A stretch of DNA of 64,000 nt from Anthracocystis setariae (taxonomy: Eukaryota > Basidiomycota > Ustilaginomycetes > Ustilaginales > Ustilaginaceae): the NCBI GenBank assembly GCA_928724745.1, contig CAKMXJ010000032.1:186001-250000 (forward strand), read 5' to 3'. Shown piece by piece: positions 47,321-58,477 of this stretch (position 1 is the stretch's first letter; every line of letters starts with the position of its first letter). The translations under genes and the position numbers were made by a program. The notes beneath the pieces were generated by a model. That model saw only the letters and a list, made by a program, of their open reading frames with translations. It was not told the DNA's origin and did not search any database.

Positions 47321-48223
47321 GGAATGCGCCAATTCACAGCCGTAGCGAGCGTTCAAGGACTTCCAAAAGGAAGAAGTCAACCGAGAATCGCGGTCGCTGA
47401 TGAGACGGGTGGGATAACCGACGTGAGGAAGTAAGCGCTCGGCGAAATGAAAGCTCCATTGTTCCGCTGTCCAGGTGGTGGCTCCGGAAAGGAGATAAAC
47501 ACGGCGGGTTGCAGTGTCCGTCACCACGAGGATAGTGTCAAGGAGGTCGCGATCGAAATGAGAACGAACCGGAGGTAAACGCACGATGAAATCGCAGGAA
47601 AGAGTGGCGAACGGAGTGGCCGGACTGGGAAGCGGTTGGAGGGCGCCGTAGGGGCGGTGGCGTTGAATGGCAGTCTGCTGACAATGCGTGCAGCGGCGCA
47701 CGAAGGCCTCGATGTGGCGAAGTAGATGAGGAGAGTAAGCCACTTGGCGGAAGCGGTCGAATGTGGCTTTCACGCCAAGGTGGCCGGAATGAGCTAAGGC
47801 GATTACCTGAGACAGGGCGGCGGGCCCGATGCAGATGCGCCACTTGGAATTCTCATCAACCTTATGCAGCAATCCAGCGCTGGACAAGCCCCAGTTGCCT
47901 TGTCGGAACGGGCGCGCACCATTTGCTTGGGATACAAGGTCGGCGGAAATGCGAGTGAAGGCGGAGTCGGAGCGCTGACTAGATGCGATGGTCTCGTGCA
48001 AGGCAGGGCTGAGAGTAACGTGATGCACGGACTCACCAAGATTGGAAGTTTCCGCTGCTTGGATACGGCTGAGAGCGTCCACATGCGTCATGTACATACC
48101 TTTGCGATGCATGATGGTGATCTTGGGACGGAATTCGGCGAGGATGAGAGCGAAACGAACCAGGCGGGGATTGCGAGAGGCAGGTGTGACGGAGAAGGGC
48201 TTGGCGTCGGCGATGCTGGTAAC
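47321..48223 (-). pseudogene. Outer gypsy pol, second part: end of RNase H and integrase N-terminal half
   Basis: This segment lies between the two nested insertions. In the outer pol frame it reads through the RNase H end, the HHCC finger of integrase (HSGHLGVKATFDRF then CTHCQQ), the first catalytic aspartate in LSCDFIVRLPP and the second in LISDRDSRLTSSFW. It stops where the inner gypsy LTR begins. The copia insertion precedes it on the element strand. Confidence 0.85.
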
Positions 48224-49165
48224 TATTAGATTCTAAAAGTCAATCGATGCGAAGTAGCTATCGCGGCGTTAGTTTATCCAATGTTAGATACGACTTACAA
48301 CATTCGGTAATGGATGTTTGACATCCGATATCCTATTTCCTAAGTTGCGATCTTGGGAGAGTGTCGTGAGTCGTTAAGTCCGTGCTCGAACTATCACAGA
48401 GTTTGATGTCTGTGACTTAGTAATGCTAGGACAATATCGATATTGAACGGGGCGCAGCGGTTAGAAGCTTCGAAGGATTTGGACGAGGAAGATCAACATC
48501 CAATATCGGATGTTGATGCTAGTCGTCAGATCTTATAAGTCGATAAGTAAGGTAGTGATTCGATAAGTTCTATTCACTTTCTCGGGTGCTGGTCCCGGGT
48601 CTTATATACATATGTCTTGATCCTAACTCGTACAGCGAAGGTGTCCCCATCTTCGCTATACTCCCTATGCGTTTCCTATAGTGACTATCTTGTCCTCCGT
48701 CTATGTCCCCAACACTCGTTATTGAGTGTTTCTCTTCATCATGTGGGCCCTTATTCCGCCACTGAGCCTCGTACCTCAGTCATGATTGGTTCGTGTCTCG
48801 TCCGCCCGTCCTTCTCTCCTCTTCCATGCTAGGTAGAAGGTTCCGTTCGGGGCGGACCGGTTTGCCACCCCTCTAATGTGGTCCTGTCATTGGGCGATGA
48901 GTGTGTGGGTTCGTAACTGAGGTTCATGATTCGTCGAGCGGTCTCAACATTTGGTATCGAATGTTGAGACCTGTCAGCGGACCAATGAGGGTACTGTCGG
49001 GTGTCGCGTGGGCGCGGGAAATGTCTAAATCCGCCCGGCGAACATTGGGACCGGTGTCTCGACATTCGCCGTCGCGTGTACAACACTCACTACTGAGTGT
49101 TGTGTGCCGATATGTGATGTGCCCGATTGCGAGATGAAAAGCTGATTCGTAAGGCGAATCCAACA
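48224..49165 (-). repeat. 3' LTR of the copia element
   Basis: 942 bp. It contains six copies of the 20-bp inverted repeat, including one with 12-bp perfect arms (48941-48972). The short frames inside it recur identically in the other LTR and are not genes. Confidence 0.95.
48941..48972. repeat. Perfect inverted repeat with 12-bp arms in the copia 3' LTR
   Basis: Arms GGTCTCAACATT and AATGTTGAGACC surround an 8-nt centre. The centre of this structure is one copy of the 20-bp family (48947-48966). The same structure is at 56232-56263 in the 5' LTR. Confidence 0.9.
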
Positions 49166-49177
49166 GTCCCCCTCATC
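49166..49177 (-). other. Polypurine tract of the copia element
   Basis: GATGAGGGGGAC on the minus strand directly precedes the 3' LTR. Confidence 0.75.
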
Positions 49178-49239
49178 GAGCACTCACATCACACGGCACA
49201 GACAAGTACATTTCGATCAAGACATTTTGCATTGGACTG

Positions 49240-50913
49240 CTACTCTTCATATTCCTGGTCCGCGTTTCCACGTCCAGTCTTACGTCCGACGAGTGCTTCA
49301 CGCTCGTCGAACATCTTTCGAAGAGTGCCGGCAATCCTAATGACGTTGGCCGGAGTCCAGAGGCGAGGTTTGTTCTTCTCGCCCCTCACGTTCCTGTCGC
49401 CCTTGATGCCGGCTTCCGCTGCTTGTCGCAGCTCCTCCAGTCCAGCTCGGATTTCACCCGCGAGTACCACTCGTCGGGTGCGCTTACCTTCGAATCCTGT
49501 TCCTCGACAAATCCTGCCGCTGACGATGCAGGCGTCGCAGGCACCCTTGTCTGTTGCGCGATTCCGGCCCATGTGGTTGACACCGGCGCCGTACGTGCAA
49601 AGGATCCTGCGCGTCTCGCAGGGTTTGCACGACGGTTCGGCGACGCGGAATCCGGGATGCAGGTCGTCACCATGCTTGGGGAAGTGCTCGGATGAGCAAC
49701 GTACTTCCCCAGCAGGTACGACGAACCTGCGTTGCTTCTCCAGGCCGATATCGGGGTCCATCGGTCCGGACCAAGCAAGATGCGGTGGCAAGGGCCACCT
49801 CGCGCATCCACCAGCGGGCTCGGGTGCCAGGCTGGGAGGGTCTCGACGAGAGGCGCTTGCATCCTCTTCGTCGTCGTCGTCGATGAGATTGCCCTCGTCG
49901 TCCTGAGGGCATCGGAAAAGGGATTGCTGGCTGGGCGGGGGGAGCTCAGCGGCGATCATGTTGGAGGAGGTGGAAGCGAGGGAGGTGACGTTGCGCGTCG
50001 ACCTCAACCTCAAACCGCCTGTGCTCGGTCGAGCGGATGCAGGCGTCGTGGGTGCCGTGCTCTCCGGAGCAGAGGGCGGCGAGAATGATCCATCCGTCGT
50101 GCCACGCCGGGCAGGGGGCGAAGGTGAAGTCGTGTCTCTTGAGGTGGACCGCGATGACGCCGAGCCACGATTGGCAGGCGACGGAGGTGGGGAAAGTGGT
50201 ACTCGAATGGGCGGTGGAGATTCCGATGCTGCGCCTGTTGAGGCGGGCAGCGGCGAGTCCGAGCCACGGGTGGCGGACGGCGAGATCGAAAGCAACTGCA
50301 CTTCCCCGTGGAAGGCAGGCGAGAGATGGGGAGGAGTCGTTGAGGTAATGGCCGTGTCGCGATTGACAGAGGGCCCGGCGAAGTCGTTCCTAGCCATGCT
50401 GTCGACAGCAGAGGGCTCGTCATCGTCGATGTCCATGGCATCCGGGCCAGAGGGACAAGTCGTTGGTGCCGTGGTGGTGACGGCGGCGTTGTCGGTGGTG
50501 GTGGTGCTCGCCGTCTGAGCTGCGCGCCTCGCGGCGGCAGCTAGTACGGCCCGGCGTTGGGCCTCTCGTTGCTTCTTGGACATCGCCATTGTCGTCGGCG
50601 GAGGAAAGGAGTGTGGTGGTGGTGGTGAGGAAGGAAGAGAGAGAGAAGGAGGAGAAGAAGGAGAAGAGAGGGAAGGCGAAGGAGCTGAGTTCAGGATCTC
50701 TTTGTCTTCTTCCGCCTTCTCTCTTTGTCTGATTGTTCGGTTCTCCGCAAGTAGGGTCGGTGACATTCCTATAGTGCGTTTTCCAAGTCTGGCTCGCTTC
50801 TTCGAGGGCACTTGAGCGGTGTGAGGGTTTGTAGATACTGTTCTGCGCAGCCGTTTAATGAAGTCGATGCGCCGCGAATGCGCAGAAGATATTCGGTTTC
50901 GGGTTACTGACAT
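49240..50913 (-). CDS. Extra ORF of the copia element, Cys-rich Zn2Cys6-like protein
   Basis: A 557-codon ORF lying between the end of pol and the polypurine tract, on the element strand. The ATG at 50913 lies inside a copy of the 20-bp palindrome; in-frame ATGs at 50589 and 50583 (MAMSKKQREAQRRAVL) could also serve. The first 370 residues are basic at the start and then Ser/Pro/Thr-rich, with an acidic patch (LIDDDDEEDAS). Six cysteines at 429, 432, 439, 459, 462 and 469 form C-x2-C-x6-C-x19-C-x2-C-x6-C, the Zn2Cys6 cluster pattern with a longer middle loop. A basic helix-prone tail follows. I do not recognise the protein. It is not env-like: no signal peptide or membrane span is seen. A captured host gene or an element regulator are both possible. 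Confidence 0.7.
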   Translation of the reverse strand: MSVTRNRISSAHSRRIDFIKRLRRTVSTNPHTAQVPSKKRARLGKRTIGMSPTLLAENRTIRQREKAEEDKEILNSAPSPSLSSPSSPPSLSLPSSPPPPHSFPPPTTMAMSKKQREAQRRAVLAAAARRAAQTASTTTTDNAAVTTTAPTTCPSGPDAMDIDDDEPSAVDSMARNDFAGPSVNRDTAITSTTPPHLSPAFHGEVQLLSISPSATRGSDSPLPASTGAASESPPPIRVPLSPPPSPANRGSASSRSTSRDTTSPSPPARRGTTDGSFSPPSAPESTAPTTPASARPSTGGLRLRSTRNVTSLASTSSNMIAAELPPPSQQSLFRCPQDDEGNLIDDDDEEDASASRRDPPSLAPEPAGGCARWPLPPHLAWSGPMDPDIGLEKQRRFVVPAGEVRCSSEHFPKHGDDLHPGFRVAEPSCKPCETRRILCTYGAGVNHMGRNRATDKGACDACIVSGRICRGTGFEGKRTRRVVLAGEIRAGLEELRQAAEAGIKGDRNVRGEKNKPRLWTPANVIRIAGTLRKMFDEREALVGRKTGRGNADQEYEE

Positions 50914-51094
50914 TCAGTACTGAATGTGGCGGCGGTGTGTGAGCTTTGGGAGGGCCGGTAATTGTTTTTGGTTGACCTTCGTAGGTCTTTTTATCCTTTT
51001 TCTGATTTTTGTTTCGTGTTTGAATTTTCCTTGAGGCGTTTCGGCAAGCTGTCAAGTAATGCCGGGTATTTACATAGACAGGGTCCAACATTCA

Positions 51095-54000
51095 TTACTG
51101 AGTGTTGGGTTTCATTGTCGGTTTTTGGCATTGGATCCCGAGTGCGTCCCTGTTGGTCGTAATCTTATTCTTCTCGAGCGCCTTTGTCAGGATATCGGCC
51201 AATTGATCGTTTGTCGATACTGGTTTCACAGAGAGCACACCTGATTCCTGGTACTCTCGTGTGATGTGGTACTTGAGCCTAAAATGCTTAGTTCTGTTAT
51301 GGAACTTCGGCTCTTTGCTGAGCTCGATTGCTGCTCTGTTGTCCACCATGAGGTCTGTCGGGGTTTTGATTTGCAAGCCGAGTTCAGACATTACCCATCG
51401 AGTCCATATGATCTCCTTGCCGGCCTCTGCCATCGCGACGTATTCAGCGTATGTGGTGGAGTCCGTGATGATCGACTGGAGTTTCGATACCCAGCTGTAC
51501 GGCATTGAAGCGACAGTGTTGACAATTCCAGATGTGGATCGCGATGTCTCAGTGTCCCCCGCGTGATCTGCATCGGTGAATGTGCGCAACCATTTTCCAA
51601 AGTCAACATTCGATGCTGAATGTTGGGAATCGAGTATGCGTCTGTACATTAGTCCATGCGTGTTAGTTCCCTTGAGGTAACGGAGTAGGTGTTTCGCTTG
51701 GACCATGGCATTAGCATGCGGATGTGCGAGTTCTCGGCTGAGCTTTTGGATCGCGAAGGCGATGTCAGGCCTGGTGCAGGTGGCTATGTATAGCATCTGG
51801 CCGATGATGCTTCTGTACGTGGAGTGTTCTTGTGGGGGGAGTGGTTCCCCTCCTTTGAGGTCGCTGCTTGGATTAAGTGGTGTATGGACGATGTTTGCGG
51901 AGTCTAAGCCATATGTTGTGAGGAGGCGATTGATGTAGCTGGTCTGCGTAAGGTGGATCGTCTTCGAAGTCTGTTCGACTTGTATGCCAAGGATGTAATC
52001 CAATAGCTCGCCGCCGGTCATCTTGAAATGCTTTCGGAGCTCGGTCATGACACTGGAGGCTGAATCTTTGTTCTCAGCGAAAATGAGGATATCATCAACG
52101 TAGAGTGTCAAGATCACACGACCAGTCTCAACATTTGGTACTGAATGTTTGATATATAGTGCCGAATCGTGTTTGCTCCTTGTGAATCCCATTCCTCGCA
52201 GTGTGGAGTCCGCCTTGTGGTACCAAGTCCGCCCAGCTTGCTTGAGTCCGTAGAGTGACTTATTGAGCTTGCAGACCGTTCCATCGGGTGATCCTCGTGG
52301 ATAATCTGGTGTTGGCGGCGGTCTCATGTAGAGGTCCTTGTCGATCTCCCCGTTCAGGTATGCGGTCGAGACGTCCATTTGATAGATGCTCCACCCAACT
52401 TGTAAGCTGATGATCATCAAGAGTCTCAGAGTGGAGATCTTGACTACTGGGGCGAAGGTCTCATCATAGTCGATGCCGTGTTTCTGGGCAAATCCTTGAG
52501 CCACAAGTCTTGCCTTGTACTTATCGATCGATCCATCTGACTTTCTCTTAATCTTGAAGACCCATCGGCTACCGATGATGTTGGATCCAGATGGTGGTTT
52601 GGTCATTGTCCATGTGTTGTTGTCCTTGTGTGACAGAAGTTCTTTATCGATTGCTTCTTTCCACAAGTTCCAATCTGGTCTTCGATGCGCTTGAGCGATT
52701 GTGCGAGGTTCATCATCAAGTTGGCCAACTGGATCGGTGGTCTCAACATCTGATACCGAATGTTCCAACTCGTCGACGATTTCTCGTACCGCGTTGGCCT
52801 GGAGTCTTGGCGATCCCGGCGGTGACCCAGGAGGAGTCGCTATTCCTTGCGCGCGTTCTTCTGGGGTAAGGTAAGGCAAAGTATTGCGCTCAGGGATTTC
52901 GTTGAGGGTTGCGACATCTGTGTTGTTGATGCGTGTTTCGGTGGGTGAGTCTCCAACATTCAGTACTGGGTTGTCGTACTCGTCACTGGATGTTGGCAAC
53001 CTCGCGTCTGATTCACGAATCCCAGCGAAGGGGAATGAGGTCTCATCGAAGGTGCAGTGAACCTGTGTCAGGTATTGACATTCGTTCTTATCGTATAGCT
53101 TGTAAGCCTTGGTTCCTGGCGTCACGCCGAGGTATACGCAAGGCACGGCTCGATTGTCCAAAGTGGTTCGTTTTTCGGCGGGAATATGGGCAAATGCTGC
53201 ACATCCGAAGGTGCGTACCATAGTCAGGTCCGTAGGTCTGCCATACAACGCTTCGTATGGCGTCTTCATGCCGTTTCCTTTGGTTGGTAACCGATTGTTG
53301 AGGTACACGGCATGCAGGAGTGCGTCACCCCACATGGTGTCTGGGACGCTTGACTGAATCATGATGCAACGCACTATGTTGAAGAGCGTTCGATTCATTC
53401 TCTCCGCGACACCATTCTGCTCGGGAGCGAACGGTGATGTCCGTTCGTGTAGTATGCCGTGTCGGCCAAGATAGTCTGCCATTTCGTTACTCGTGTACTC
53501 CCCTCCATTGTCAGTACGGAGTCGTTTCATCTGATTGCCAGTTTGCCTTTCCATGACTGTCTTGTACTCTTGCAGGCATCCAAAGACTTCACTCTTGCGA
53601 GAAATGAGATAAACCATTGTGAATCGAGTGCAATCGTCAATGAATGTGACTGCGTATCGATGGCCTTGTGGAGTCTCATCTGGAATCGGGCCCTTGACGT
53701 CGGAGTGTACAAGCTGAAGTGGGGTGTCAACACTCAGTACTGAGTGTTGAAAGGGCAACTTGGATGATTTACCCACTTCGCAGGTTTCGCACTTGGGTTG
53801 TGACTTTCGCGTGTCGATAGTCATTCCGGGGACTGATTTGGCAATCTCTTCAAGACGTTGTTTTCCTGGATGCCCGAGGCGTTTGTGCCAGTCGTCAGCC
53901 TTGGTGCTGTGATCAGCGGCGAGTCCGGCGAAATCTATACCGACCTGGTCGACGTATGTGAGCGGTCCGATGTGTACACCTCTGCAGGTGACTCTTCCGC

Positions 54001-55510
54001 TTCTAGTTTGGGCGATTGTTTGCTTGTCGGTCGTTGTAATTCTGACTTTCCTTCGCATGATTCCTGTTGACAGCAAGTTGACGCTGAAGGATGGTATATA
54101 GGCGACGTTGGTGAGGGTGATCCTATTGGTTAACCCGTTTCCTACGTTGACTTCCATTTCTACAGTACCGAGTCCTTCGATCTTGACTGGGACATCGTTT
54201 GCAACCCAGATTGGTTTCATTGAGACGCCAATGTGAAGGTCCGAGAAGAGATCTTTGTTACAGCAGATGTGTCTGCTCGCACCTGAGTCCATGAGCCACA
54301 TCGTCGTTCGGGGATGTGTTGAGTCGGTAATTGAGTACGCGTTCTCATTATTGGGTCCCTGGACTCGGTTCTGAGTGTTTGACCCTGGATTATTGGATCC
54401 CCCGACTCGGTTCTGAATGTTTGACCCTGGCCGGTCTACCTTTGGGTTATTGCAGTTCCTTGACAAGTGCCCCTTTTGTTGGCAATTGTAACAAGTCATT
54501 TGTTCGATGGGGACCTTCTTCTTACTCTTGGACATTGGACGCTGAGTGTTCTTCTTTCCCTTCTTGTTCCCATCACTCGCGTAGTATGCCGAAGAGTTGT
54601 TCTTGTGTTTGCTTTCCAGTCCATGGTTGTTGAGTCCCAAGCGTAGTTCTTCACTCCTGAGCCTAGTGACGATAGAGTCGAGCTCGACTTTCTCGTCGAT
54701 GGTCTGACTTGCGACAGTGAACATTTCGTTTTCGTTCCCAATCCTGTGTATGATCATCTGTCCTTGTTCTCGGCGAGCTCGGTACGTTTCTTTGATCTGA
54801 GCCGCTATGTTCTCGTATTCCTTCCGTAGTCCTTTCATTAGGATACTGTACTTCTTGTGGAAGGTAATGGTATATCCAGCAAGCATGAGGTGATCTGCGA
54901 GTTGATTGATGCGACCGACGAAGCCGTCGATGGTTCGTCTGTCTTGCCTTAGGCTGTTGAATTCCGTCTCCATCTCTTCGAGCTGCCACTTCATGGATTT
55001 GGCAAATCGATCCTCGAGTGTCGTCCATATCTGGTGAGCGTCCTCGAGATCATTGATGGTGTGCTTGATGTCGTTCGATAAGCTACTTCTGAGCATGCCG
55101 CATGCGGTCAGGTTTGCGTTCAGCCAATCTCCATATGCGGTGTCGTCTTCTGATGGTCGGGGTAAAGTCCCTCTGACGATTCCGTACACCCGTATTCCCT
55201 TTTGCATCAATACATCGATACATTTATCTTTCCATGTGTAGTAGTCTTTGGCTTGTTCGAGTTTCGGTAGTCGCAGGTGGTTTTGCGATGCATTCGATTC
55301 CGTCATTGTGAACACAGATCCGGGTGTCGGCGAGTTGCGAGGGGTGTTGATATTTGTGGTTACGTTGGCGACACTCAGTGATGAGTTGTCGAATTCGTTG
55401 GTGTCTTGTGTGTCCCTGCTGATAGTTTCAGCGATCGAATCGAGGGGACGTGATCTTGAGCGAGTTCCTCGGTAGGTACCTTCAGAGTTTCCGTCAGGCG
55501 TTGGGCTCAT
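51095..55510 (-). CDS. Copia Gag-Pol polyprotein, intact
   Basis: A single 1,471-residue ORF. Order: Gag; CCHC knuckle CYNCQQKGHLSRNC; protease with WLMDSGASRH (about 54270-54299); integrase with WHKRLGHPGKQRLEEI and CETCEVGKSSK, then the D,D,E core; reverse transcriptase with YVDDILIF (about 52089-52110); and RNase H (TDADHAGD...STSG). This PR-IN-RT-RH order defines Ty1/copia. The ATG at 55510 lies inside the primer-binding site, four bases after the 5' LTR. The stop TAA at 51095 lies inside a palindrome copy. Ten further palindrome copies are embedded in the coding sequence in two reading frames. No frameshift or stop interrupts it, so it could be active. Confidence 0.95.
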   Translation of the reverse strand: MSPTPDGNSEGTYRGTRSRSRPLDSIAETISRDTQDTNEFDNSSLSVANVTTNINTPRNSPTPGSVFTMTESNASQNHLRLPKLEQAKDYYTWKDKCIDVLMQKGIRVYGIVRGTLPRPSEDDTAYGDWLNANLTACGMLRSSLSNDIKHTINDLEDAHQIWTTLEDRFAKSMKWQLEEMETEFNSLRQDRRTIDGFVGRINQLADHLMLAGYTITFHKKYSILMKGLRKEYENIAAQIKETYRARREQGQMIIHRIGNENEMFTVASQTIDEKVELDSIVTRLRSEELRLGLNNHGLESKHKNNSSAYYASDGNKKGKKNTQRPMSKSKKKVPIEQMTCYNCQQKGHLSRNCNNPKVDRPGSNIQNRVGGSNNPGSNTQNRVQGPNNENAYSITDSTHPRTTMWLMDSGASRHICCNKDLFSDLHIGVSMKPIWVANDVPVKIEGLGTVEMEVNVGNGLTNRITLTNVAYIPSFSVNLLSTGIMRRKVRITTTDKQTIAQTRSGRVTCRGVHIGPLTYVDQVGIDFAGLAADHSTKADDWHKRLGHPGKQRLEEIAKSVPGMTIDTRKSQPKCETCEVGKSSKLPFQHSVLSVDTPLQLVHSDVKGPIPDETPQGHRYAVTFIDDCTRFTMVYLISRKSEVFGCLQEYKTVMERQTGNQMKRLRTDNGGEYTSNEMADYLGRHGILHERTSPFAPEQNGVAERMNRTLFNIVRCIMIQSSVPDTMWGDALLHAVYLNNRLPTKGNGMKTPYEALYGRPTDLTMVRTFGCAAFAHIPAEKRTTLDNRAVPCVYLGVTPGTKAYKLYDKNECQYLTQVHCTFDETSFPFAGIRESDARLPTSSDEYDNPVLNVGDSPTETRINNTDVATLNEIPERNTLPYLTPEERAQGIATPPGSPPGSPRLQANAVREIVDELEHSVSDVETTDPVGQLDDEPRTIAQAHRRPDWNLWKEAIDKELLSHKDNNTWTMTKPPSGSNIIGSRWVFKIKRKSDGSIDKYKARLVAQGFAQKHGIDYDETFAPVVKISTLRLLMIISLQVGWSIYQMDVSTAYLNGEIDKDLYMRPPPTPDYPRGSPDGTVCKLNKSLYGLKQAGRTWYHKADSTLRGMGFTRSKHDSALYIKHSVPNVETGRVILTLYVDDILIFAENKDSASSVMTELRKHFKMTGGELLDYILGIQVEQTSKTIHLTQTSYINRLLTTYGLDSANIVHTPLNPSSDLKGGEPLPPQEHSTYRSIIGQMLYIATCTRPDIAFAIQKLSRELAHPHANAMVQAKHLLRYLKGTNTHGLMYRRILDSQHSASNVDFGKWLRTFTDADHAGDTETSRSTSGIVNTVASMPYSWVSKLQSIITDSTTYAEYVAMAEAGKEIIWTRWVMSELGLQIKTPTDLMVDNRAAIELSKEPKFHNRTKHFRLKYHITREYQESGVLSVKPVSTNDQLADILTKALEKNKITTNRDALGIQCQKPTMKPNTQ

Positions 55511-55514
55511 AACC
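55503..55514 (-). other. Copia primer-binding site, initiator-tRNA-Met anticodon type
   Basis: GGTTATGAGCCC on the element strand directly follows the 5' LTR. It is complementary to GGGCTCATAACC, the anticodon stem-loop of fungal initiator tRNA-Met, not to a tRNA 3' end. This is the half-tRNA priming arrangement known from Ty5 and Drosophila copia. The polyprotein ATG lies within it. Confidence 0.8.
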
Positions 55515-56456
55515 TATTAGATTCTAAAAGTCAATCGATGCGAAGTAGCTATCGCGGCGTTAGTTTATCCAATGTTAGATACGACTTACAACATTCGGTA
55601 ATGGATGTTTGACATCCGATATCCTATTTCCTAAGTTGCGATCTTGGGAGAGTGTCGTGAGTCGTTAAGTCCGTGCTCGAACTATCACAGAGTTTGATGT
55701 CTGTGACTTAGTAATGCTAGGACAATATCGATATTGAACGGGGCGCAGCGGTTAGAAGCTTCGAAGGATTTGGACGAGGAAGATCAACATCCAATATCGG
55801 ATGTTGATGCTAGTCGTCAGATCTTATAAGTCGATAAGTAAGGTAGTGATTCGATAAGTTCTATTCACTTTCTCGGGTGCTGGTCCCGGGTCTTATATAC
55901 ATATGTCTTGATCCTAACTCGTACAGCGAAGGTGTCCCCATCTTCGCTATACTCCCTATGCGTTTCCTATAGTGACTATCTTGTCCTCCGTCTATGTCCC
56001 CAACACTCGTTATTGAGTGTTTCTCTTCATCATGTGGGCCCTTATTCCGCCACTGAGCCTCGTACCTCAGTCATGATTGGTTCGTGTCTCGTCCGCCCGT
56101 CCTTCTCTCCTCTTCCATGCTAGGTAGAAGGTTCCGTTCGGGGCGGACCGGTTTGCCACCCCTCTAATGTGGTCCTGTCATTGGGCGATGAGTGTGTGGG
56201 TTCGTAACTGAGGTTCATGATTCGTCGAGCGGTCTCAACATTTGGTATCGAATGTTGAGACCTGTCAGCGGACCAATGAGGGTACTGTCGGGTGTCGCGT
56301 GGGCGCGGGAAATGTCTAAATCCGCCCGGCGAACATTGGGACCGGTGTCTCGACATTCGCCGTCGCGTGTACAACACTCACTACTGAGTGTTGTGTGCCG
56401 ATATGTGATGTGCCCGATTGCGAGATGAAAAGCTGATTCGTAAGGCGAATCCAACA
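55515..56456 (-). repeat. 5' LTR of the copia element
   Basis: 942 bp, no difference seen from the 3' LTR. A TATATAAG box on the element strand at 55892-55899 is the likely promoter. Six palindrome copies lie in it. Confidence 0.95.
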
Positions 56457-56461
56457 GTAAC

Positions 56462-58477
56462 CGCCAAGTGGTCGGTGAAAAGAATGTGAGGACCGGGTGA
56501 TGCATCAAGGAAACGGCGGGTGCGCTGTAAAGCCCAGACCGCGGCCGCGGCCTCGAGCTCAGTAGGCCAGTAGGCCTTCTCCGCTGGCTGCAGGGCGCGT
56601 GAGTCAAACCATATCGGAACCTCCGAGGGGGAACCCGACGATGAGGCATGGCGACTCTGGTGCAGAGCCAAGGCGAAGCCATTCTGCTGCGAGGCGTCGA
56701 CATAGAGAAGAAACGGTAGGGAATAGTCAGGGAAGTGAAGCACTTTGTCCTGCAAAATGCGCTTGAGTTCCTGTAAGGATTGGCGCGCGCCTGGGTCGGA
56801 GGGAACGGCGGTGGTTGAACAATGCTTCTTCCGAGCTTGTCCACCCGGCGGGGCGCCTTTCAACAGCAATGTCTTGAGCCGCTGTAGAGGTTGAATGAGG
56901 GCTGCAAATCGAGAAACATACGTCTTGTAGTAGGAGAAGAAACCGACAATGTACTCCAGCTGGTTGAGGGTAGTCGGGTACTGGATGTTCTGAATGGCTG
57001 TGCACTTCTCCGGGTGCAACCGAGTACCTGTGCCGGAAACCAGATGACCCAACAGCGGAACCTCAGCGCGCGCAACGTGAGCTTTGTCGCGGGCGAGGGT
57101 GAGGCCTAATTGGCGGATGACGTCCATGACAGCCCTGACGTTGCGGAGATGGTCTTCAGCGGAGAGGGAGCGGATGCCAAAATCGTCAACGTAGACAAAG
57201 GTCTTGTCTGCGAGGCCCGCGGCGGCGAAAGCCTCGGTTAAGGTACGTTGAAGGAAGGCGACTGAGCGGGATTGACCCATGATGGTGCAGGAAAGAGTTT
57301 CCTGACCACGGTGGGTGAGCACAGTGGCCTTCCAGCGATCGTCGGCGTGTAGCGGCATCTGATAGAAGGCTTTCCTCAAGTCGAAGGTGGTGATCAAGGC
57401 GGCGCCGGCTAAACGTTCACGGAGATTGTCAGGATTGGGGAGAGGGTAATGGTCGGGATCGACGACTTGATTGAGTTGTCGGAGATCTACTACAGGGCGG
57501 GGCTTGCCGTTACGGTATACTACGAAGACTGGCCAACCGCATGGCGTCCCAGGGGGTGCTTTCGTTAACCGGCCCTGTTGAGTGAGAGCGTCGAAGACTT
57601 CGTCGATAGCGCGGCGATCGCGAGGTGAGACACGATATAGGCGGGGTTTAAATTGATGCGGGTTGCGGTCAAGGACGGTGGAAGGAAGACGCATCGCGTC
57701 CCTGGTTTGGAGCAAACCCAACTCCGGGCGCCACACATCAGGAAACTTGTCGAAAAGGTTGAGGAAGGCGGCACGCAAGGTTGGGTCACAGTTAGAGTCA
57801 AAGATGGGTTGTTGATCTGAGTCTGGCTGGTCCGGCTGAACGGTGAAGGGTAAGGTGTAACCGTCCATGTCGGGAGGTGCGCGCATGTCGGGGGCTAAGA
57901 CGGCGTTGGGAGCAAGAGTAGAGACCGCTGGAGGCGAAGTAGCGAGCGCTGCAATGGGTTGCACACCCGGACGTTGTACGGTCTTTACTGAAACGCGCAG
58001 ACCGCAAGATTGTAGTGAGACGACTGACTTGACTGAGTCGAAGAGGAGGCCGTGGGCGAGGATAAAATCCATACCGAGGATTAGACCGGGAGGAAGCTTG
58101 GCGAGGACGTGGCAAGAAACAGTAGCGCGAGCGATGGCGTGGGGTGGGCAGGGAATGTGTAAGGAGAAGGTTGCGGTACCCAGGGAAGTGATGGGGGAGC
58201 TGGCTGTAGAAATGGTTGTAGTAGCCGAATGCATGGTATGGTCGAAATGCTGCAACAGCGATTGGGCGATGAGAGAGCACGAAGCGCCGGTGTCGAGGCA
58301 AGCCTCGATCGCTGGACCGCGATTGGGCTGGACGGGGAGGCGGAGGAAGGAAGGAACGAGGTGGAATAGCGGCGAGGAAGTGTCGTGAGCATCGACGATG
58401 GGTAGAGGTGGAGCTGCAGCTTTGTCGGGAGGATGCCGGGGTGGGGAGTTGTGCGCGGATAGACTCCCCGCGTGATC
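56462..58477 (-). pseudogene. Outer gypsy pol, first part: protease, RT, start of RNase H
   Basis: This frame directly continues gag after its TAG stop (58478-58480). It holds the protease motif LDTGASCSLI (DTG at 58286-58294) and GLILGMDFI, reverse transcriptase with PVVDLRQLNQVV, FDLRKAFYQMP and the catalytic VYVDDFGI, a connection region, and RNase H beginning LLYVDASQQNGFALAL. It breaks in RNase H at the copia LTR. The remaining parts are at 47321-48223 and 38904-39686. All three are free of stops and in one frame once the inserts are disregarded. Confidence 0.9.

What the first reader, a model, noticed from the sequence alone, without database searches (positions are those of the whole stretch)
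48224..56456. A copia element studded with about 24 copies of one 20-bp inverted repeat of fixed geometry
Every copy has a 7-nt half-site, a 6-nt spacer and an inverted 7-nt half-site (AACAYTC-N6-GARTGTT). Copies lie in both LTRs (six each) and at twelve internal sites. Coding copies occur in two different reading frames (HSVxNV-type and NTQ-type peptides), so selection or copying works on the DNA, not the peptide. Constant spacing suggests recognition by a dimeric protein. I saw no comparable copy in the other elements or the chromosomal genes.
Basis: seen in the sequence. Interest (0 to 1): 0.92.

Follow-up and report, generated by a model that had tools for sequence, protein, structure and literature searches.

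The report
Retrotransposon studded with self-recognition sites
A fungal jumping gene carries about twenty copies of one short mirror-image DNA word, its sister families carry different words at the same places, and each of these families also encodes its own candidate DNA-binding protein, which looks like a private lock-and-key system by which an element recognises its own copies.

Summary
In detail: 21 copies (14/20 or better) lie in one intact Ty1/copia element (48224-56456), against 0-2 in shuffles. There are five clear sites per LTR, not six, and 7 of 21 fit the stated consensus exactly. The decisive evidence lies outside the window. Two sister families in the same genome (gag-pol about 71% and 65% identical) carry about 20 copies each of a different palindrome: A AACAYTCAGTACTGARTGTT, B AACACGCAACGTTGCGTGTT, C AAACCCGACGTCGGGTTT. 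Three coding sites sit at identical alignment columns in all three families; the encoded peptides differ. The word has changed in concert. In noncoding LTRs the arms vary 2-4 times less than flanks. Mismatch types do not suggest an RNA hairpin. All three encode, after pol, an ORF2 with C-x2-C-x6-C-x19-C-x2-C-x6-C, a divergent zinc-cluster pattern. Best reading: ORF2 binds its family's palindromes as a dimer. The role is unproven; VANC-like self-specific anti-silencing is my first choice, autoregulation or cDNA coating the rivals. Limits: words cross-match in part between families; of four further copia families one pairs ORF2 with a palindrome, one with a non-palindromic motif, one has ORF2 without motif, one a motif without ORF2.

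The parts
48219..48223 (.). target-site duplication GTAAC, left
48224..49165 (-). LTR (3' LTR in the sense of the element), identical to the other
48299..48318 (.). palindrome AACATTCGGTAATGGATGTT
48495..48514 (.). palindrome AACATCCAATATCGGATGTT
48711..48730 (.). palindrome AACACTCGTTATTGAGTGTT
48946..48965 (.). palindrome AACATTTGGTATCGAATGTT
49082..49101 (.). palindrome AACACTCACTACTGAGTGTT; arms without variation among the 23 aligned LTR sequences
49240..50589 (-). ORF2, 449 aa from the ATG that matches the start of the other families (frame open from an ATG at 50913, 557 aa): candidate palindrome-binding protein; contains no site of 14/20 or better
49357..49647 (-). zinc-cluster-like domain C-x2-C-x6-C-x19-C-x2-C-x6-C and the stretch after it
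50909..50928 (.). palindrome GACATTCAGTACTGAATGTG, upstream of the likely ORF2 start
51087..51106 (.). palindrome AACATTCATTACTGAGTGTT, across the pol stop
51095..55510 (-). gag-pol, 1471 aa, open; Retrotran_gag_2, zf-CCHC, rve, RVT_2
51605..51624 (.). palindrome AACATTCGATGCTGAATGTT (peptide HSASNV)
52130..52149 (.). palindrome AACATTTGGTACTGAATGTT (peptide HSVPNV)
52745..52764 (.). palindrome AACATCTGATACCGAATGTT (peptide HSVSDV)
52955..52974 (.). half-decayed site AACATTCAGTACTGGGTTGT (17/20)
53729..53748 (.). perfect 20-bp palindrome AACACTCAGTACTGAGTGTT (peptide HSVLSV)
54360..54379 (.). half-decayed site (15/20), NTQ frame
54402..54421 (.). half-decayed site (15/20), same frame (NIQ)
54531..54550 (.). 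weak site (14/20), NTQ frame
55370..55389 (.). weak site (15/20) near gag start
55515..56456 (-). LTR (5' LTR in the sense of the element)
55590..55609 (.). palindrome, LTR copy
55786..55805 (.). palindrome, LTR copy
56002..56021 (.). palindrome, LTR copy
56237..56256 (.). palindrome, LTR copy
56373..56392 (.). palindrome, LTR copy
56457..56461 (.). target-site duplication GTAAC, right

Best explanation
The palindromes are double-stranded-DNA recognition sites for a protein that the element itself encodes. ORF2, a divergent zinc-cluster-like protein downstream of pol, would bind each palindrome as a dimer, so that copies of its own family are marked along most of their length (LTRs, gag-pol and the ORF2 leader, but hardly the ORF2 body). 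Protein and sites change together, which splits the elements into families with largely private codes. The most likely use is self-specific anti-silencing or activation: the bound protein keeps the element's own chromatin open in a host that has RdRPs and DNA-methylase homologues, as VANC does for VANDAL transposons.
For: Own-word sites: A 21, B 20, C 22 (thresholds 14/20, 14/20, 12/18), against maxima of 2, 4 and 6 in 30 shuffles each. The B and C words were taken from these same elements, so the fairer control is the de novo palindrome scan, in which the shuffles may choose their own best word: A 19, B 23, C 17, shuffles 1-4 in ten each. Sites at the same alignment columns 595, 932 and 1137 in all three families, and 1312 in A and B with C at 1306, with different peptides; three or more exact triple coincidences in 0 of 100,000 uniform random placements. 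LTR arms less variable than 30-bp flanks: A 0.049 vs 0.104, B 0.066 vs 0.134, C 0.033 vs 0.130; rank p 0.0025, 0.011, 0.0011. Three words in one nucleus are hard to explain by one host protein (inference). ORF2 in A, B and C: six cysteines conserved, the residues between the second and third differ. Family F, further off, also has such an ORF2 and a dispersed palindrome (de novo scan 10 vs 1-3). C and F words contain CCG-N4-CGG; everted CGG half-sites are known for the Zn2Cys6 protein Leu3 (passage and reference title; its N4 spacing is recalled). Host has three RdRP matches and DNA_methylase matches at three places.
Against: No binding, expression or methylation data. The words are not fully private: the A word is found 9 times in B (shuffle maximum 2), the B word 5 times in A (maximum 1) and the C word 13 times in B (maximum 6) at the thresholds. 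Where bits are shown, ORF2 matches Pfam Zn_clus at 8.7-14 bits against a cut-off of 21 (in one search 9 of 10 domains match, best E 0.003). The zinc-cluster protein AlcR is the best PDB hit of one profile and second of another, not significant (E 0.25 and 0.11; ribosomal eL37 0.43 and 0.089), and AlcR is cited as binding as a monomer. A single-sequence fold failed (pLDDT 36). The pairing of ORF2 and motif is not universal: E has an ORF2 with paired cysteines but no motif found; D has a dense hexamer but no ORF2 seen; G's motif is not palindromic. Random-placement p for the A LTRs is only 0.05. CpG is not depleted in A-C (observed/expected 1.08-1.15), so past methylation leaves no visible trace.
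Confidence: 0.5

Rival explanations
1. ORF2 and its sites are an autoregulatory or copy-number circuit: the dimer represses or tunes the LTR and ORF2 promoters, and sites inside gag-pol act as roadblocks or decoys that titrate it.
For: Sites are dense in the LTRs (5, 5 and 4 in A, B and C) and in the pol-ORF2 leader; zinc-cluster proteins are usually transcription factors (passage). Titration would explain many sites.
Against: Does not easily explain why coding sites are held at fixed places, often 500-900 bp apart, across three families.
Confidence: 0.22
2. ORF2 coats the element's double-stranded cDNA before integration (nuclear entry, protection from self-integration, or steering to or away from existing copies); family-specific sites keep each family's cDNA with its own protein.
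For: Sites run along most of the element including coding parts and both LTRs; several copies sit in clusters (for example C32:638-689 kb, C15:500-515 kb).
Against: The ORF2 region (1.5-1.8 kb gap) has no site at the thresholds in A, B or C, which coating would not predict; no known integration-linked domain was found in ORF2.
Confidence: 0.15
3. The palindromes act in RNA as hairpins (packaging, dimerisation or translation control).
For: Each site could form a 7-8 bp stem; the internal sites are in the transcript (inference).
Against: On the sense strand A-C mismatches exceed G-U pairs in all three families (66/37, 28/18, 31/13), the reverse of what paired RNA should leave; both arms keep a fixed word rather than only matching each other.
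Confidence: 0.04
4. A host protein binds the sites, either for silencing or hijacked by the element.
For: Elements often borrow host factors (general knowledge); the words of A, B and C cross-match in part.
Against: Three families in one nucleus carry three words at homologous positions; one would need host factors that track each family.
Confidence: 0.06
5. Peptide-level repeats or chance: the motif is a by-product of a repeated peptide or of base composition.
For: Coding copies give recurrent peptides such as HSVxxV.
Against: Ten of 21 sites are in LTRs; coding sites use two or three frames per family; peptides at one position differ between families; shuffles give 0-2 sites.
Confidence: 0.02

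Closest known systems
VANC / VANDAL anti-silencing system of Arabidopsis (Hosaka et al. 2017, PMC5735166, parts 1 and 2 of 6 of the text read; Sasaki et al. 2023, PMC10398659, abstract and outline)
   Same: A mobile element encodes a variable protein; a short motif is dense in its own family and rare in other elements; related families have different targets; protein and motif are said to coevolve while the replication protein stays more conserved.
   Different: VANDALs are DNA transposons; the VANC21 motif (YAGTATTAY) is non-palindromic, lies mainly in noncoding regions and spreads by tandem repeats. Here the element is an LTR retrotransposon of a probable fungus, the sites are single dispersed palindromes, 9 of 21 inside gag-pol at conserved positions, and no VANC domain was found in ORF2. 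Demethylation is not shown here.
Fungal Zn2Cys6 (Gal4-type) binuclear cluster proteins, e.g. Leu3, AlcR
   Same: Six cysteines in two C-x2-C-x6-C blocks; words C and F read like everted CGG half-sites. AlcR too has a long stretch (16 residues, counted from the alignment) between the third and fourth cysteine.
   Different: 15-19 residues there, longer than in Gal4-type proteins (recalled); below Pfam's cut-off where bits are shown; no CGG in the words of A and B; the gene rides in a retrotransposon.
Ty1/copia LTR retrotransposons
   Same: gag-pol order, RVT_2, rve, zinc knuckle, LTRs, 5-bp target duplication.
   Different: An extra ORF downstream of pol and family-specific dispersed palindromes.

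Membership tests
Ty1/copia LTR retrotransposon | integrase before reverse transcriptase, RVT_2-type RT | tested here: met
Ty1/copia LTR retrotransposon | LTRs with target-site duplication | tested here: met
VANC/VANDAL-type anti-silencing system | motif dense in own family, rare elsewhere | tested here: met
   with partial cross-matching between sister families; genome lists were capped, 8 isolated sites inspected, 6 of them in LTRs of these families
VANC/VANDAL-type anti-silencing system | motif and encoded protein differ between related families | tested here: met
VANC/VANDAL-type anti-silencing system | motif in noncoding tandem repeats | tested here: not met
   sites dispersed, 9 of 21 in gag-pol
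VANC/VANDAL-type anti-silencing system | VANC domains (DUF1985, DUF287) | tested here: not met
   no such Pfam match
VANC/VANDAL-type anti-silencing system | protein binds motif; copies lose methylation | not testable with these tools
   needs biochemistry and methylation data
Zn2Cys6 binuclear cluster DNA-binding proteins | C-x2-C-x6-C ... C-x2-C-x6-C | tested here: met
   families A, B, C, F and G; E deviates (read)
Zn2Cys6 binuclear cluster DNA-binding proteins | profile score above Pfam cut-off (21 bits) | tested here: not met
   A 8.7, B 11, C 14, F 9.2 bits; none listed for G and E. Cut to the domain, 9 of 10 match, best E 0.003; bits shown for one only (13.3)
Zn2Cys6 binuclear cluster DNA-binding proteins | binuclear zinc fold | tested here: inconclusive
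   single-sequence model pLDDT 36; PDB profile hits not significant

The most novel reading that the evidence does not exclude
A fungal LTR retrotransposon lineage has independently evolved a VANC-like, self-specific anti-silencing system in which the element's own gag-pol coding sequence has been sculpted, at fixed codons in variable protein loops, into a scaffold of dimer binding sites; the code shared by the protein and roughly twenty sites has been rewritten as a whole at least twice, splitting one lineage into families that largely ignore each other inside one nucleus.
Probability: 0.4. Interest if true: 0.93.

Novelty: new variant of a known kind. Interest (0 to 1): 0.86.

Why it matters
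How a DNA-binding specificity can change when it must keep matching some twenty dispersed sites is an open question in regulatory evolution. Here three solutions sit side by side in one genome, at homologous positions, with the candidate protein beside them, so the change of code can be tested directly. If the role is anti-silencing, it would be an independent origin of a strategy described for Arabidopsis VANDALs, in a different class of element and another kingdom, with the added feature that coding sequence carries the sites. It would also give a set of related DNA-binding domains with different long recognition words.

Tried and rejected
Protein searches with ORF2 (whole: the 7985 candidates sharing most words were scored; residues 360-545: 1148 candidates) found no match at E<=0.001. 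Single-sequence structure prediction of the ORF2 C-terminus failed (pLDDT 36), so no fold search was run. No relatives of the host genome are held, so the comparison rests on families inside one genome. Pol relatives from other smut-type fungi came only as proteins (seven of the 120 listed were aligned); one of them (Moesziomyces antarcticus, P0005) has KHAHARS at the first cassette, close to B's KHATSRV but not the same; its DNA was not seen. RNA-hairpin reading: disfavoured. Peptide-repeat reading: rejected. CpG depletion as a trace of methylation: none in A-C. Motif in family E: none found by palindrome scan or 6- and 8-mer enrichment. Paper searches for a description of this system (in some only 10 of 14, 14 and 19 papers were listed) showed none that I recognised from title and start of abstract; the library holds open-licence papers only. 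My notebook says 7 of 8 lone sites lie in LTR relics; one search bears out 6 of 8. It also gives the P0005 cassette as possibly its own word, which is untested.
Full report
WHAT IS THERE. The window is G000:C28:186001-250000 of an unnamed 21.5-Mb genome in 36 contigs. The named gag-pol relatives with the highest identity include Moesziomyces antarcticus (63% over 66% of the query), Kalmanozyma brasiliensis (53%) and Ustilago trichophora (39-41%), so the host is probably a smut-type fungus (inference). The element at 48224-56456 is an intact Ty1/copia retrotransposon on the minus strand: identical 942-bp LTRs, target duplication GTAAC, an open gag-pol of 1471 aa with gag, zinc knuckle, integrase and RVT_2 reverse transcriptase, and a second open frame, ORF2, between pol and the 3' LTR (49240 to 50589 or 50913).

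THE REPEAT. Against the 20-mer AACAYTCAGTACTGARTGTT, 21 positions in the element score at least 14/20 and 1 elsewhere in the window; at 15/20 it is 20 and 0. Thirty dinucleotide shuffles of the element give mean 0.47 and maximum 2. Five clear sites lie in each LTR and eleven inside. Genome-wide, 100 exact sites exist and none for the reversed control pattern (capped list).

SISTER FAMILIES WITH OTHER WORDS. ORF2 has 48 matches in the genome, 41 of them without a stop; several are pieces of one copy. Gag-pol has 32 scored matches (of 148 first-look candidates): 13 at 97-100% (A), 6 at 71-72% (B), 12 at 66-68% (C) and one fragment at 73% that I did not assign. Looking for any recurrent palindrome in their loci showed AACACGC...GCGTGTT in B and AAACCCG...CGGGTTT in C. 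In one full stretch each, B has 20 sites at 14/20 (shuffle mean 0.6, maximum 4) and C 22 at 12/18 (mean 2.7, maximum 6; 18 at 13/18). Cross-matches exist: A word 9 times in B and once in C; B word 5 times in A, none in C; C word 13 times in B (shuffle mean 2.8, maximum 6) and 4 in A (mean 1.9). The words share bases, so this is expected, but it means that the codes are not fully private on paper. In the de novo scan, where shuffles may pick their own best word, A, B and C have 19, 23 and 17 against 1-4. Exact genome counts are 68 (B) and 71 (C), reversed controls 0.

CONCERTED CHANGE AT FIXED POSITIONS. With gag-pol of A, B and C aligned, palindromes sit at the same columns 595, 932 and 1137 in all three, and at 1312 in A and B (C has one six columns away); near 43-64, 363-370 and 847-858 all or two of the families have sites at similar but not identical columns. 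With two A, three B and three C copies the lists by codon are: A1 40, 320, 363, 377, 587, 845, 915, 1120, 1295; B1 47, 306, 342, 554, 677, 805, 876, 923, 1081, 1256; C1 36, 338, 555, 807, 887, 1092, 1261 (several are at threshold). Codon phases are 0 and 1 in A, 0, 1 and 2 in B, 0 and 2 in C. At column 595 the peptides are QHSVLSV (A), KHATSRV (B) and RNPTSGS (C); families D to G and six of seven outside proteins have nothing alike there, and P0005 has KHAHARS. Three or more exact triple coincidences arose in 0 of 100,000 uniform random placements. Read outward from the centre of symmetry the half-words are A AC-TGARTGTT, B GT-TGCGTGTT, C GT-CGGGTTT, and F (below) GT-CGGTA: A and B, the closest by protein, share the most; C shares its core with F. 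So the word seems to have changed step by step along the family tree, at all sites together (inference).

CONSTRAINT ON DNA. In noncoding LTRs, mean pairwise mismatch in arms versus 30-bp flanks is 0.049 vs 0.104 (A, 20 sequences), 0.066 vs 0.134 (B, 6) and 0.033 vs 0.130 (C, 10); rank tests p 0.0025, 0.011, 0.0011; random placement p 0.05, 0.028, 0.0018; spacers do not differ from flanks (identical or contained LTRs and pieces under 350-500 bp were dropped). A first run with 23 A sequences gave random-placement p 0.047. Old LTR copies only 70-81% identical still carry exact words (L041, L043). Sense-strand mismatches within sites are A-C more often than G-U in all three families (66/37, 28/18, 31/13 among 52, 41 and 41 distinct sites), which speaks against an RNA hairpin.

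OTHER COPIA FAMILIES. I looked at one element of each of four more families among 81 RVT_2 matches. F: ORF2 with C-x2-C-x6-C-x16-C-x2-C-x6-C; de novo scan 10 against 1-3; 36 sites at 10/14 of TACCGACGTCGGTA against 0-6 in 20 shuffles in the 8.8-kb stretch, whose element ends I did not locate (at least one site lies in a neighbouring gypsy-like frame). G: ORF2 with x15; GACTTC 32 times against 0-10 in 20 shuffles, 29 of them in the LTR-bounded part; not palindromic, chosen after the fact from 6-mer enrichment. E: an ORF2 with paired cysteines of another spacing and no motif found. D: no ORF2 seen among frames of 150 codons or more, but 65 TGCGCA in about 4.5 kb, 61 of them in the gag-pol frame in all three phases. 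So ORF2 with a palindrome holds in A, B, C and F, ORF2 with another motif in G, and the pairing fails in D and E.

ORF2. In ten domains from five families (A, B, C, F, G) the six cysteines are invariant. Pfam Zn_clus scores 8.7-14 bits in A, B, C and F, below the cut-off of 21; cut to the domain, 9 of 10 match, best E 0.003. By profile, the PDB's AlcR zinc cluster is matched at E 0.25 and 0.11, with all six cysteines aligned in the printed alignment, while ribosomal eL37 gets 0.43 and 0.089. I therefore call it zinc-cluster-like, not a proven member. Between A and B the domain is 40-44% identical while gag-pol is 71%, so it evolves faster, and the residues between the second and third cysteine, which contact DNA in Gal4-type proteins (recalled), differ between families. 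The ORF2 region is the longest gap between sites in each element (1827, 1545 and 1687 bp at thresholds 14/20, 14/20, 13/18; at 12/18 C has one weak hit there). The rough chance of such a gap is 0.06-0.09 per family, modest evidence.

HOW IT MOST LIKELY WORKS. One host protein hardly accounts for three words in one nucleus; the specificity should travel with the element, and ORF2 is the only gene in it without an assigned role (inference). I propose dimeric ORF2 binding along the element. For its use, anti-silencing fits best: sites cover LTRs and coding sequence, the host has three RdRP matches and DNA_methylase matches at three places, and a family-specific motif plus a variable protein is the pattern reported for VANC. 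Autoregulation and cDNA coating remain open.

WHAT IS NEW. The kind is known from VANC; what differs is the element class, the kingdom, the palindromic sites and their embedding in gag-pol at conserved codons. Eight paper searches showed no description of it, judged from listings of open-licence papers, some capped. PMC9603552 (passages) reports that Copia elements make up more than 2 Mb in barley smut genomes and speculates about methylation of LTR elements; one listing hit concerns fungal DNA transposons that encode TET/JBP dioxygenases (PMC12730594, listing only).

Noticed in passing
L037:2250-6732 (G000:C5, family D copia): 65 copies of the hexamer palindrome TGCGCA in about 4.5 kb, 61 in all three phases of the gag-pol frame (36/17/8) and 4 outside it; TpG+CpA is 1.58 times expectation and CpG 0.73. 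No ORF2 was seen. Unexplained; not the same as the 20-bp sites.
   Followed up: partly
L040 (G000:C36:194000-202000, family G copia): GACTTC occurs 32 times on the two strands against 0-10 in shuffles; non-palindromic, scattered through LTRs and coding sequence, in an element that also has a zinc-type ORF2.
   Followed up: partly
L038:5865-7316 (family E copia): ORF2 with paired cysteines but no enriched motif found.
   Followed up: partly
window 55503-55514: The gag start codon lies four bases from the LTR, inside GGTTATGAGCCC, which looks like a primer site for an initiator-tRNA fragment as in Drosophila copia (recalled, not tested).
   Followed up: no
window 56381-58234: The frame on the right of the copia element reads like a gypsy-type reverse transcriptase, so the copia element may be inserted in an older gypsy element (from reading the translation; not tested, left side not examined).
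   Followed up: no
G000:C19:538724-540152, C22:426197, C11:576894; C20:365967, C3:1018875, C34:363373: Host matches to DNA_methylase (three places) and RdRP (three places): parts of a silencing machinery are present.
   Followed up: partly
L046 (G000:C2:948700-949700): An exact family-C palindrome in sequence without match to the element pieces compared.
   Followed up: no
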